DNA of 55,821 nt from assembly GCA_031269245.1 (NCBI GenBank), contig JAISZL010000087.1, positions 1 to 55,821 on the forward strand. The letters are read 5' to 3'. Numbering within the stretch: position 1 is the stretch's first letter; each line of letters begins with the position of its first letter. This DNA comes from Synergistaceae bacterium (lineage in GTDB: Bacteria > Synergistota > Synergistia > Synergistales > Synergistaceae). Below the pieces are notes generated by a model that was given only the letters and a program-made list of their open reading frames with translations, ran no database searches and was not told the DNA's origin. The position numbers and the translations under genes are program-made. Below, in pieces: positions 1-3,020 of the stretch.

Positions 1-556
1 ATCCACGGCAGCGCGCCGTTTGCCATTGACACCGGCCCCCCCCCCCCCCCCCGGATTTAAATTCCCACTCCCGTGCACTCAAATCAAACGGCTCATGATG
101 CAGCCTGCCGTAGATTACCTTGCTCCACGGCGTTACCCACGGCTCAATCATCGAGATAACCCCGCCCGCGGCGACAGCCCTTGCCGATTCCCTGAAAAAC
201 GCGCGTACATCAGGAAGATGATGAAAAACATCCGTCATCAAAATCGCCCTCAGCGCTCCGTCGTCGAACGGCAGATGCCCGCACGCATCCAAAACCATAT
301 CGATGCCATCGCACTCGAAGACCTCTGACGTGATTACCTCGCTGTTCAAATCCTTTAAAAAACCAGCCCCGGATCCTAATTCCAAAATACGGCCGCGCAC
401 AGGAGGAACGCTATTTAGCAGACATCCATACCACTCCTCGTACAGTTTCCTGAGAAACGGTTTTTCGCGCAGAATACGGCGCCTCATCAGCGTCGTATTC
501 GGGTCGTCGATATCCATGCCCCTTGTCAATGGATGAGACAGCATTCCGCGGATCAT
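1..556 (-). CDS. class I SAM-dependent methyltransferase, 3' end outside window, frame broken at a poly-G tract
   Basis: The reading frame starts at ATG 556 (an in-frame GTG at 565 would overlap the upstream stop) and runs off the left edge. The SAM-binding motif I ILELGSGAG follows an N-terminal helix rich in Arg and Leu, then come DACGHLPF and a DVFHHLPD motif, as in small-molecule or glycan methyltransferases of Methyltransf_11 type. After WEF the gene meets a run of 17 G (positions 52-36). In the entry frame the sequence beyond the run is meaningless; shifted by one base it reads PVSMANGALPW, which fits the NGALPW motif of the family. With 17 bases the copy is therefore out of frame; 15 or 18 would restore it. 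It lies immediately downstream of a methyltransferase-glycosyltransferase gene, so a role in decorating a surface glycan or polyprenyl-linked sugar is inferred. The substrate is unknown. Confidence 0.72.
   Translation of the reverse strand, partial: MIRGMLSHPLTRGMDIDDPNTTLMRRRILREKPFLRKLYEEWYGCLLNSVPPVRGRILELGSGAGFLKDLNSEVITSEVFECDGIDMVLDACGHLPFDDGALRAILMTDVFHHLPDVRAFFRESARAVAAGGVISMIEPWVTPWSKVIYGRLHHEPFDLSAREWEFKSGGGGGGRCQWQTARCRG
36..52 (-). repeat. poly-G tract (17 bases) inside a methyltransferase gene
   Basis: An uninterrupted run of 17 C on the + strand (G in the coding sense) within the glycine linker of the methyltransferase. The length is not compatible with the frame on both sides. 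Runs of this kind mutate by slipped-strand mispairing and are classic contingency loci; a sequencing or assembly length error is the main alternative. Confidence 0.85.
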
Positions 557-561
557 CGCCG

Positions 562-2016
562 TCACACGAATTTTATCTTGAACGCGGCGTAGGCTACCAT
601 CTTAAGGAGCATCCAACCGTGCCTCCAACGATTGATGTTGGTGTCCCCATAGGTTCTGTCGCGATAGCGCACGGGCAGGTCGACTATTCTCAAGTTCAGT
701 TTCGCCGCGCCGAAGATGAGGTCGAAATCTCCGAAGGGGTCGAAGTCCCCGAAATAGGCCCTGTTTTGGACTATGCGCTCGTAGTTGGACTTGGTCAGCG
801 CTTTCGTCCCGCAGAGCGAATCCCTCAGGGTCTGGCCGAGCAGCCATGAAAACGCCCCGCTGAAAAACTTGTTCCCGAGCAGGTTAAAGAACCTCATCGC
901 CCGCTCCTGCATAGGATATACCAGGCGAACGCCGTTCACAAACTCCGCGCGCCCGGAGTAAATCGCATCGTAAAAGCGCGGCAGGTCCTCCGGCGGAACC
1001 GTCATGTCGGCGTCAAGAATCATCAGTATGTCGCCGTTCGCCTTTGCGAAACCGGTCCTGACCGCGTCTCCCTTGCCCCTGCCCGGCTGCCTGTACAGGA
1101 CGCAGTTCCGCTCGCTCTCCTCGATCGCGCGCGTTATGACCTCGTATGTGTCATCCGAGGAATTCCCCTCCACAAATATTATCTCCGTCCCCCCCCCCCC
1201 CCCCCCCATCTCTGGAATTCTATCCAATATGGCCATGATGTTGCCGGCCTCGTTGCGAGCTGGGACCAAGACGCTGACCGTAGGGGGATTCTGTTTCCAT
1301 GCGCGTCTGACCGACGGTTTTGGGCGGGCTATCATGAAATTCGTCAGGTCGAATATCTTGAACGGCCATATCTTGGCGAGGAATTTGTTGAGAAAATCGG
1401 AAACGATAGGAATTCCAACCGGAAATAAAAATTCCGACCACGACCGAAAGACCTCGTAGCCGGACAGATACAGCAGGTTCGCCATATCCTCCCTCGTCAG
1501 CCAGTTCTGCCGGAGAGTCGGAGTCGCCAAACCGAGGCGGCGCGCGAAATTAAGCGGCCCCTTCCAGAGATGGCTGAAGAAGTTGAAAATGATCTTGGTC
1601 TCGTTGCGGCAGAGCGGATGCAGTTTCTCCAAAATCGTCTGGACATCCCATACGTCGTTCAGCACATCGGATAAAATTATATAGTCAAACTCCCCCTCTA
1701 TCTCCAGACAGTGGGCATCCGCGCATTCGAACCGCAGGCCGGGATAGCGTTTTTGGGCCGCGGTTATCATGCTTTGGGAAAAATCCACGCCCACCCCGTA
1801 TGAGGGCTTGAGCGACGCCAGGAGGAAGCCCTTTCCGCAACCTATCTCGAGCACCCTGGCCCCTTCAGGGATGCAAAAACGATAGACCCGCGTCAGGTAT
1901 TCCCTATAATATCTGGGACACTTTTTATCCCTATCGAGATTTGCCGCGCCATCCCAGTTATGACGTCTCTCATCCGAGTATTTCTTGAAATATGGATCGT
2001 TAGGCCACAAATACAA
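562..2016 (-). CDS. bifunctional SAM methyltransferase / GT2 family glycosyltransferase
   Basis: About 484 residues. The N-terminal half is a class I methyltransferase (motif VLEIGCGKG, then GVDFSQSMI and ILSDVLNDV). The C-terminal half is a GT2 domain of the dolichyl-phosphate-mannose synthase type: VSVLVPARNEAGNI, FVEGNSSDDT, GKGDAVRTG, the metal-binding ILDADMTVP and the acceptor-side SLCGTKAL. No ATG lies near the true N terminus. The preceding membrane-protein gene stops at 2025 and TTG at 2016 (or 2010) follows a GGGTGG stretch, so I use 2016; the frame upstream of that is a shadow. A run of 19 G (1207-1189) supplies the last base of an ATG plus six Gly codons just before FVEG, and here the frame is kept. 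It probably moves a sugar onto a polyprenyl phosphate and methylates a product; both substrates are unknown. It ends a few bases before the next methyltransferase gene. Confidence 0.85.
   Translation of the reverse strand: MYLWPNDPYFKKYSDERRHNWDGAANLDRDKKCPRYYREYLTRVYRFCIPEGARVLEIGCGKGFLLASLKPSYGVGVDFSQSMITAAQKRYPGLRFECADAHCLEIEGEFDYIILSDVLNDVWDVQTILEKLHPLCRNETKIIFNFFSHLWKGPLNFARRLGLATPTLRQNWLTREDMANLLYLSGYEVFRSWSEFLFPVGIPIVSDFLNKFLAKIWPFKIFDLTNFMIARPKPSVRRAWKQNPPTVSVLVPARNEAGNIMAILDRIPEMGGGGGGTEIIFVEGNSSDDTYEVITRAIEESERNCVLYRQPGRGKGDAVRTGFAKANGDILMILDADMTVPPEDLPRFYDAIYSGRAEFVNGVRLVYPMQERAMRFFNLLGNKFFSGAFSWLLGQTLRDSLCGTKALTKSNYERIVQNRAYFGDFDPFGDFDLIFGAAKLNLRIVDLPVRYRDRTYGDTNINRWRHGWMLLKMVAYAAFKIKFV
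1189..1207 (-). repeat. poly-G tract (19 bases) inside the GT2 glycosyltransferase gene
   Basis: A run of 19 C on the + strand, coding for six Gly in a loop between the first beta-alpha unit and the FVEG strand of the GT2 fold. The frame is open on both sides at this length. It is the second such tract within 1.2 kb, which argues for a phase-variable locus. Confidence 0.85.
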
Positions 2017-2024
2017 ACACCACC

Positions 2025-3020
2025 CTAGTCTTTTTTCCTTTTTATTCCAAGAAATCCGGCCTTCCCAACAAACAAAACGACAAGAGCGGCTAACGTCGGT
2101 ACTAATTGTATCATACGCAACAAAAATGCGATACCCAATGCGGGCTCCTGCCCCACGCCGAACAGGGACAGTCCCCACACCACTGACGCCTCGAACACCC
2201 CCAGGGAGCCGGGGGCGGTAGGCAGAAGCTGGCCCGCGGCGGAGATCAAAAACACCTCGGCGGCGGCTTTGATTGAAATATTGAAATCGCCCACGCGCAT
2301 TAACGCGTAAACAGTGTAAGCGAAGTACACCGCCCATACGGACAACGTGGCTGCCCACGCCTTCAAGAGCTGGCGTGACGTCATGTCACGCAGGAGATGT
2401 CTCTTGAGCCCGTCAAAAAATTTGACGCCCCGGAGCTTCGGCATCGCTCCCCAAATAGCATCGAACCGCTCAGGGCGGCATCTGAAAAAGATCAGAAGGA
2501 ACCAGCAGACCGCAAAAACAACGCCCATCCGCCGTATCAATGAGCCCTTGGCTATGTCAGTCAACGTCAGCGCGATCAAGAGGTAAAGGCAGTTCGCGTC
2601 GAAGAAACGTTCGAAAAAAACCGCGGCGGCGGCGGCGTGCGCCGGTCTGCTCAGCGACTTATTCACGTAAACCACCTTGAGCACCTCCCCGCCCTTCGCG
2701 GGAAGCACATTGTTGAGGCCGAGCCCGAGAACCGTAACCCTCAATGCCTCCCACAACCCGAGGGGAGGTTCGAAGAGCAGGGAAAGGCGCAACGCTTGAA
2801 GCCATATGCAGAGAATGCTTATAAGCACAGCCGCTGCCACATGGAATATCGAGTAGTTTTTTACAGCTCTCCGCAATAAATCGGAGTCAATTCCCTTTAA
2901 CGCGTAGATCAGACATATAGCGGAAACCGCCAGCTGCAGCGAGAACGTCAATATACGCGGGATACTCCATCCCATTCTCCCGGACGGAAATTTCCCCGGC
3001 CCAGTTCCCCGGCTATCCAA
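2025..3020 (-). CDS. LPG_synthase_TM / UPF0104 family integral membrane protein (flippase-like)
   Basis: 331 residues with multiple hydrophobic helices. The sequence has hallmarks of the lysylphosphatidylglycerol synthase TM / AglD-like family: a cytoplasmic RLSLLF helix end, GLGLNNVLPAKGGEVLKVVYV after the third segment, a FFERFFDA motif, and a C-terminal region with ISAAGQLLPTAPGSLGVFEA. Family members are polytopic proteins next to glycosyltransferases, and some take part in lipid-linked sugar transfer. Its stop lies 8 bases before the TTG start of the methyltransferase-GT2 gene, so the two are probably co-transcribed. The N-terminal 15 residues before MGWSIP may not be translated; ATG 2975 is an alternative start. 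Membrane location is clear, substrate is not. Confidence 0.8.
   Translation of the reverse strand: MDSRGTGPGKFPSGRMGWSIPRILTFSLQLAVSAICLIYALKGIDSDLLRRAVKNYSIFHVAAAVLISILCIWLQALRLSLLFEPPLGLWEALRVTVLGLGLNNVLPAKGGEVLKVVYVNKSLSRPAHAAAAAVFFERFFDANCLYLLIALTLTDIAKGSLIRRMGVVFAVCWFLLIFFRCRPERFDAIWGAMPKLRGVKFFDGLKRHLLRDMTSRQLLKAWAATLSVWAVYFAYTVYALMRVGDFNISIKAAAEVFLISAAGQLLPTAPGSLGVFEASVVWGLSLFGVGQEPALGIAFLLRMIQLVPTLAALVVLFVGKAGFLGIKRKKD

What the first reader, a model, noticed from the sequence alone, without database searches (positions are those of the whole stretch)
36..52. Methyltransferase gene apparently switched off by a 17-base poly-G tract
The frame before the tract carries a good SAM methyltransferase (ELGSGAG, DVFHHLPD) and the frame after it, shifted by one base, carries NGALPW, which I recognise as a family motif. 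With 17 G the two halves are out of frame; 15 or 18 would join them. This is the pattern of a phase-variable contingency gene caught in the off state. Phase variation by poly-G is well known in Campylobacter and Neisseria; I know of no description in this lineage, but cannot check that.
Basis: partly seen in the sequence, partly recalled or inferred. Interest (0 to 1): 0.75.

Follow-up and report, generated by a model that had tools for sequence, protein, structure and literature searches.

The report
Poly-G switch in surface-sugar gene pair
Two neighbouring genes that probably modify a cell-surface sugar each contain a long run of G that can gain or lose bases and so switch the gene on or off, and such runs turn out to be common in surface genes across this little-studied phylum (Synergistota), where I found no report of this kind of switching.

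Summary
Window 36-52 is a run of 17 C (G on the coding strand) inside a SAM methyltransferase gene. Two orthologues, about 70% identical, read through this point without a tract (FEP-AGPLSGANGALPWIVF, FES-TGPLSGANGALPWIVF), so the assembled copy is out of frame. It is in frame and adds exactly three Gly to a conserved GGG loop. The window is a whole contig of a Synergistota genome. That genome has nine G runs of 11 or more and no A run that long; most lie in glycan or secreted-protein genes. In another family the same operon carries a 14-G tract elsewhere in the same methyltransferase. Many Synergistota carry several to about 50 such tracts, in glycosyltransferases, methyltransferases, LicD, fucosyltransferases and flagellins; where both sides look coding about one third are in frame, as free slippage predicts. 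Length variation within one population could not be tested, so actual switching and the exact length 17 are inferred. Best reading: slipped-strand phase variation of a surface-glycan operon, a known mechanism in a phylum where the held library has no report of it.

The parts
36..52 (-). 17-G tract inside the methyltransferase gene, at the site where orthologues read FE(P/S)(A/T)GPLSG; assembled length puts the two halves out of frame
1..565 (-). SAM-dependent methyltransferase, 3' part missing (contig ends); start codon overlaps the end of the upstream gene
   Evidence: orthologues 69-70% identical in G072 and G098
1189..1207 (-). 19-G tract inside the partner gene; the first G belongs to ATG, the other 18 encode six Gly where homologues have GGG or GRK; in frame
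562..2010 (-). methyltransferase + GT2 glycosyltransferase fusion (482 aa), 77% identical to G072, 74% to G098, 58% to two Syntrophaceae copies; GT domain most like polyprenyl-phosphate sugar transferases
2025..3020 (-). LPG_synthase_TM membrane protein upstream of the pair, possibly the same transcript (inference)

Best explanation
The two poly-G tracts make the glycosyltransferase-methyltransferase pair a phase-variable (contingency) operon. Slipped-strand mispairing during replication adds or removes G residues. In the methyltransferase, lengths that are a multiple of three join the two halves and give a full-length enzyme; other lengths end it early. In the fusion gene the tract lies in a Gly loop, so in-frame lengths only change the number of Gly and other lengths truncate the GT2 domain. 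The pair probably transfers and methylates a sugar of a surface glycan, so the population would hold cells with unmodified, glycosylated, or glycosylated and methylated surfaces, useful against phage or other selection on the surface. Shown: the tracts, the frames, tract-free orthologues, surface bias of the tracts in this genome and phylum. Inferred: slippage in living cells, the glycan function, the selective reason.
For: (1) Two tracts in one overlapping gene pair. (2) Orthologues have intact frames without these tracts; the fusion-gene tract is an exact +3 Gly insertion. (3) The same operon in G098, another family, has a 14-G tract at a different site of the same methyltransferase, an in-frame insert of six residues; one genome's chance of a tract in this gene is about 0.3-0.5%. 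(4) Own genome: nine G runs of 11 or more, three of them 17-19, against 31 of length 8 and 16 of length 9; no A run of 11 or more. (5) Own tract genes: both window genes, a WbuX-type sugar amidotransferase and a GNAT protein in a NeuC/LegB/flagellin locus, a TPR-beta-barrel protein, two secreted repeat proteins; genes with G8-10 runs are mostly housekeeping. (6) WbuX orthologues have no tract and an intact N-terminus; the own copy is out of frame there. (7) Phylum: 98 of 188 genomes have a run of 11 or more, up to 51 per genome, in glycosyltransferases, methyltransferases, LicD, FucT, GT11, pyruvyl transferase, adhesin-like proteins. (8) Of 51 tracts with long open frames on both sides 16 are in frame. 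(9) Four flagellin homologues share the tract site with 18, 13, 13, 11 G, one in frame.
Against: No length variation within one strain or sample could be examined. The tract is at a contig end of a fragmented assembly. The tract is not conserved at this site in the two orthologues. Most species in the same genus have 0-1 tracts of 11 or more. One relative's poly-G runs are plain sequencing artefacts, so counts from draft genomes must be read with care. The glycan substrate is unknown.
Confidence: 0.8

Rival explanations
1. Assembly or sequencing artefact: the tract, or at least its length, is wrong, and the gene is simply intact.
For: The tract lies 35 bases from a contig end; 17-19 base homopolymers are hard to count; G072 has poly-G runs that are clearly artefacts next to a hairpin at contig ends.
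Against: Unlike those, this tract has true gene sequence on both sides (the ANGALPW motif after it); a second tract lies 1.2 kb inside the contig with homologous sequence (77% identity over the protein) on both sides; a finished genome of the phylum also holds such a tract (Thermanaerovibrio acidaminovorans, 16 G); the excess is G-specific and biased to surface genes. An error of one or two bases in the length is not excluded.
Confidence: 0.08
2. The methyltransferase is a decaying pseudogene and the tract is a neutral expansion.
For: The assembled frame is broken; the operon is sporadic in the family (orthologue in one other genome); tracts are gained and lost quickly.
Against: 171 residues before the tract are open and 70% identical to the orthologue with the methyltransferase motifs kept; the partner gene with a longer tract is in frame; the same operon gained a tract independently in G098 and is in frame there; about one third of tracts are in frame, not none.
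Confidence: 0.08
3. The tract works at the RNA level: polymerase slippage on G17 or ribosomal frameshifting gives a constant mixture of full-length and short enzyme, without DNA-level switching.
For: Long homopolymers can promote transcriptional slippage (PMC3711429 names homopolymers of eight or more as typical sites).
Against: Tract lengths differ between homologous copies and tracts sit at different places in orthologues, which a conserved recoding signal would not do. Both could act together.
Confidence: 0.04

Closest known systems
Campylobacter poly-G contingency genes (phasome; glycan and flagellin-modification loci)
   Same: G-specific tracts, mostly inside ORFs, many in glycosyltransferases and methyltransferases; the own genome has tracts in a NeuC/LegB/WbuX/flagellin locus.
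   Different: Campylobacter tracts are mostly 9-10 G, rarely 13-15 (PMC6321876); here 11-19 were studied. Experimentally proven there, not here. Different phylum.
Helicobacter pylori futA/futB (GT10) and futC (GT11) fucosyltransferases with poly-C tracts
   Same: GT10 and GT11 genes of Synergistota G111/G114 carry G/C tracts.
   Different: Not in the window; the comparison with H. pylori is from established knowledge, no sequence comparison was made.
Neisseria / Haemophilus simple-repeat phase variation (e.g. lic, opc, hmbR)
   Same: Frame or promoter switching by repeat slippage; LicD-family genes carry tracts in Synergistota too.
   Different: Haemophilus uses mainly tetranucleotides (PMC2651432 abstract); species and loci differ.

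Membership tests
Poly-G/C simple-sequence contingency (phase-variable) genes | Homopolymer longer than chance | tested here: met
Poly-G/C simple-sequence contingency (phase-variable) genes | Tract within the ORF or promoter so that one base more or less changes expression | tested here: met
   Frames fixed by homology for the methyltransferase, the fusion gene and WbuX
Poly-G/C simple-sequence contingency (phase-variable) genes | Bias towards surface-structure genes | tested here: met
   G111: 9 of 15 tract genes are glycan transferases against 1 of 21 genes with short G runs, Fisher p = 0.0004; own genome 4 of 9, p = 0.02; classified by hand (families)
Poly-G/C simple-sequence contingency (phase-variable) genes | Tract length differs between homologous loci | tested here: inconclusive
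   Met for flagellin and FucT homologues elsewhere in the phylum; for the window genes no orthologue has a tract at the same site
Poly-G/C simple-sequence contingency (phase-variable) genes | Length variation within one strain or culture | not testable with these tools
   no reads, one genome per species
Poly-G/C simple-sequence contingency (phase-variable) genes | Reversible change of phenotype | not testable with these tools
   needs cells or a reporter
SAM-dependent methyltransferase (class I, Methyltransf_11/25) | Glycine-rich SAM motif and family profile | tested here: met
   ELGSGAG; PF08241 above cut-off
GT2 glycosyltransferase | PF00535 profile and DxD-like motif | tested here: met
   PF00535 E 7e-23; LDADMTVPPED

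The most novel reading that the evidence does not exclude
Synergistota as a phylum use poly-G slippage on a Campylobacter-like scale (up to about 50 tracts per genome) to vary surface glycans, adhesin-like proteins and even flagellins, in lineages not known as pathogens and in genomes that keep MutS; tracts are gained repeatedly and independently in the same operon.
Probability: 0.6. Interest if true: 0.72.

Novelty: new member of a known kind. Interest (0 to 1): 0.62.

Why it matters
Poly-G phase variation is known mainly from mucosal pathogens. A large, G-specific, surface-biased set of tracts in Synergistota, including the window's GT-methyltransferase operon, would extend it to a phylum of anaerobes from guts, mouths and digesters, suggests phage or niche fluctuation rather than host immunity alone as the driver, and can be tested at once from existing read sets. 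It also warns that gene callers will miss or split surface genes in these genomes.

Tried and rejected
Looked for the missing 3' part of the methyltransferase, and so a second copy of the tract with another length, elsewhere in the assembly: none. Loss of mismatch repair as the cause: MutS_I is present in this genome and in the tract-rich genus g24, absent from g38 (tract-rich) and from f9 (no tracts), so it does not track tract load. G072 first looked the richest genome of the family (33 runs) but its runs are hairpin-plus-poly-G junk at contig ends and were discarded. Orthologues of the own TPR-barrel gene in three congeneric genomes have no tract. Structure models were too poor to use for the methyltransferase (pLDDT 39); for the fusion gene (pLDDT 57) the tract falls in a coil between a helix and a strand, weak support only. 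Paper searches for phase variation with Synergistota, Synergistetes or Fretibacterium gave no relevant report; the library lacks most subscription journals. Contig starts lie near tracts more often than expected (10 against 2.1), but some of these are artefact runs at edges, so this is only suggestive.

Full report
What is there. The window is a complete contig (C11, 55,821 bases) of a 2.34-Mb draft genome in 98 contigs. On the minus strand two genes overlap at 562-565: a 482-residue methyltransferase-GT2 fusion (2010-562) and then a SAM methyltransferase (565 to the contig end). The methyltransferase holds 17 G at 52-36; the fusion gene holds 19 G at 1207-1189. The shuffle control gives about two 9-G positions in a window of this composition against 20 found, all of them in these two tracts.

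Lineage. The window therefore comes from Synergistota, in the family that holds Thermanaerovibrio.

Frames. In the methyltransferase the motif frame after the tract (PVSMANGALPW) is joined to the upstream frame only if the number of G is a multiple of three; 17 is not. The orthologue in G072 (same family, 70% identical) reads WKFEPAGPLSGANGALPWIVF without a break and without a tract; that in G098 (another family, 69%) reads WEFESTGPLSGANGALPWIVF. In the fusion gene, four homologues have PEMGGGTE, PDMGGGTE, PEMGGGTE or PEMGRKTE, while the window has PEMGGGGGGTE: an exact insertion of three Gly, in frame. The homologues in G072, G098, a Smithella MAG and a Syntrophaceae MAG are 58-77% identical, which suggests exchange of this gene between phyla. 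In G072 the pair sits among GDP-mannose dehydratase-like, fucose-synthase-like, mannose-1-phosphate guanylyltransferase-like and dTDP-glucose dehydratase-like genes (named by eye from their sequences), i.e. in a polysaccharide locus.

Independent tract in the same operon. In G098 the same methyltransferase carries 14 G after HHLPNV, a site where the window and G072 have none; it is an in-frame insert of six residues. Tracts have thus arisen at three sites of this gene pair in two lineages. The chance that any tract of a genome falls in this gene is about 0.3-0.5%.

The rest of the genome. G runs on either strand: 31 of length 8, 16 of 9, 2 of 10, 4 of 11, then 13, 14, 17, 17, 19. The decay from 8 to 9 predicts about 0.02-0.1 runs of 17 or more; three are seen. 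A runs of 11 or more: none. Tract genes are the two above; a WbuX-type N-acetyl sugar amidotransferase (TIGR03573, E 1.6e-100) and a GNAT/FemAB-like protein in one locus with NeuC, LegB, an SDR and flagellin, plus a run in what looks like an SDR fragment there; a TPR protein with weak beta-barrel matches, tract just before the signal peptide; two secreted repeat proteins, tract at or before the signal peptide; and a radical SAM protein, tract near the C-terminus. For WbuX, orthologues without a tract give the true N-terminus (MK-YPR--DIDYSKYA-DIP, then EAK-GLP), and in the window's genome that part is out of frame with the rest at 13 C, although an alternative ATG lies just before the tract. 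The TPR gene has no tract in three congeneric orthologues, so tracts turn over fast.

The phylum. 98 of 188 Synergistota genomes have a G run of 11 or more; one genus (g24) has up to 51. Families among 82 tract-bearing fragments: methyltransferases, GT1, GT2, GT4, GT10 and GT11 fucosyltransferases, LicD, capsule synthesis, pyruvyl transferase, TylF and FkbM methyltransferases, GLUG and beta-helix proteins. Forty-six genes with runs of 8-10 G in the window's genome show TsaD, GcpE, SRP54, Rho, DnaX, tRNA synthetase and the like. By hand, 9 of 15 tract genes of G111 are glycan transferases against 1 of 21 controls (Fisher p 0.0004). Where both sides of a tract are open for 60 codons or more, 16 of 51 are in frame, close to one third; this count takes the longest frames and is not all confirmed by homology. 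Four flagellin homologues in G098 and G099 keep a tract at one site with 18, 13, 13 and 11 G, of which one is in frame. FucT genes of G114 and G111 share a tract position with 11 and 14 G, one in frame and one out. Thermanaerovibrio acidaminovorans, a finished genome, has 16 G in the region between two divergent genes.

How it most likely works. Slipped-strand mispairing changes the number of G during replication. Lengths in frame give full-length enzyme, others a truncated one. The fusion gene is assembled in frame, the methyltransferase out of frame. The glycan role is inferred from the enzyme families, the locus in G072, and the GT domain's best matches to polyprenyl-phosphate sugar transferases, all far below those families' cut-offs.

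What is not shown. No reads and no second strain were available, so variation within a population, the exact lengths and the phenotype are untested. Draft assemblies can miscount homopolymers and one relative (G072) has false poly-G ends. MutS is present here, so loss of mismatch repair is not the explanation.

Against the literature. The mechanism is that of Campylobacter phasomes, where most tracts are 9-10 G and 77% lie in ORFs (PMC6321876). The library holds no paper joining Synergistota or Fretibacterium with phase variation, and the few on Synergistetes do not describe it as far as their titles, abstracts and the passages read show. I therefore rate it a new member of a known kind, in a new phylum as far as this library shows.

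Noticed in passing
L158 1494-1511, L159 1501-1511, L247 2047-2059, L250 2054-2066: Flagellin genes of G098 (three copies) and G099 carry a G/C tract at one conserved site (18, 11, 13, 13); only one is in frame, which suggests switching between flagellins.
   Followed up: partly
L220 2033-2043 and L232 2041-2054: Fucosyltransferase (GT10) homologues in G114 and G111 share a tract site; one in frame, one out.
   Followed up: partly
L085 (G000 contig C69) 1-19483: Legionaminic/neuraminic-type sugar locus with NeuC, LegB, WbuX and flagellin, carrying three G/C runs of 11-14, one in what looks like a broken SDR duplicate.
   Followed up: partly
L182-L211 (G072): Contig ends with a repeated hairpin GACCGTGGGCGCCGCCCACGCCC followed by poly-G/poly-C junk: a sequencing artefact, probably at a dispersed hairpin repeat.
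   Followed up: partly
window 562-2010; L149, L150: The fusion gene is 58% identical to copies in Syntrophaceae MAGs and sporadic in its own family: probable transfer between phyla.
   Followed up: partly
G097-G099 (genus g38), f9 genomes, G031: MutS_I not found in these Synergistota although some are 99% complete.
   Followed up: no
L075 1502-1513 and L229 2050-2061: Amino-acid permease homologues in G055 and G114 share a 12-G tract at the very C-terminus, a non-glycan use.
   Followed up: no
L073 (G032) 1502-1513 and L072 (G012) 1502-1517: G runs of 12 and 16 in upstream or intergenic regions of two genomes of Thermanaerovibrio's genus, possibly acting on promoters.
   Followed up: no
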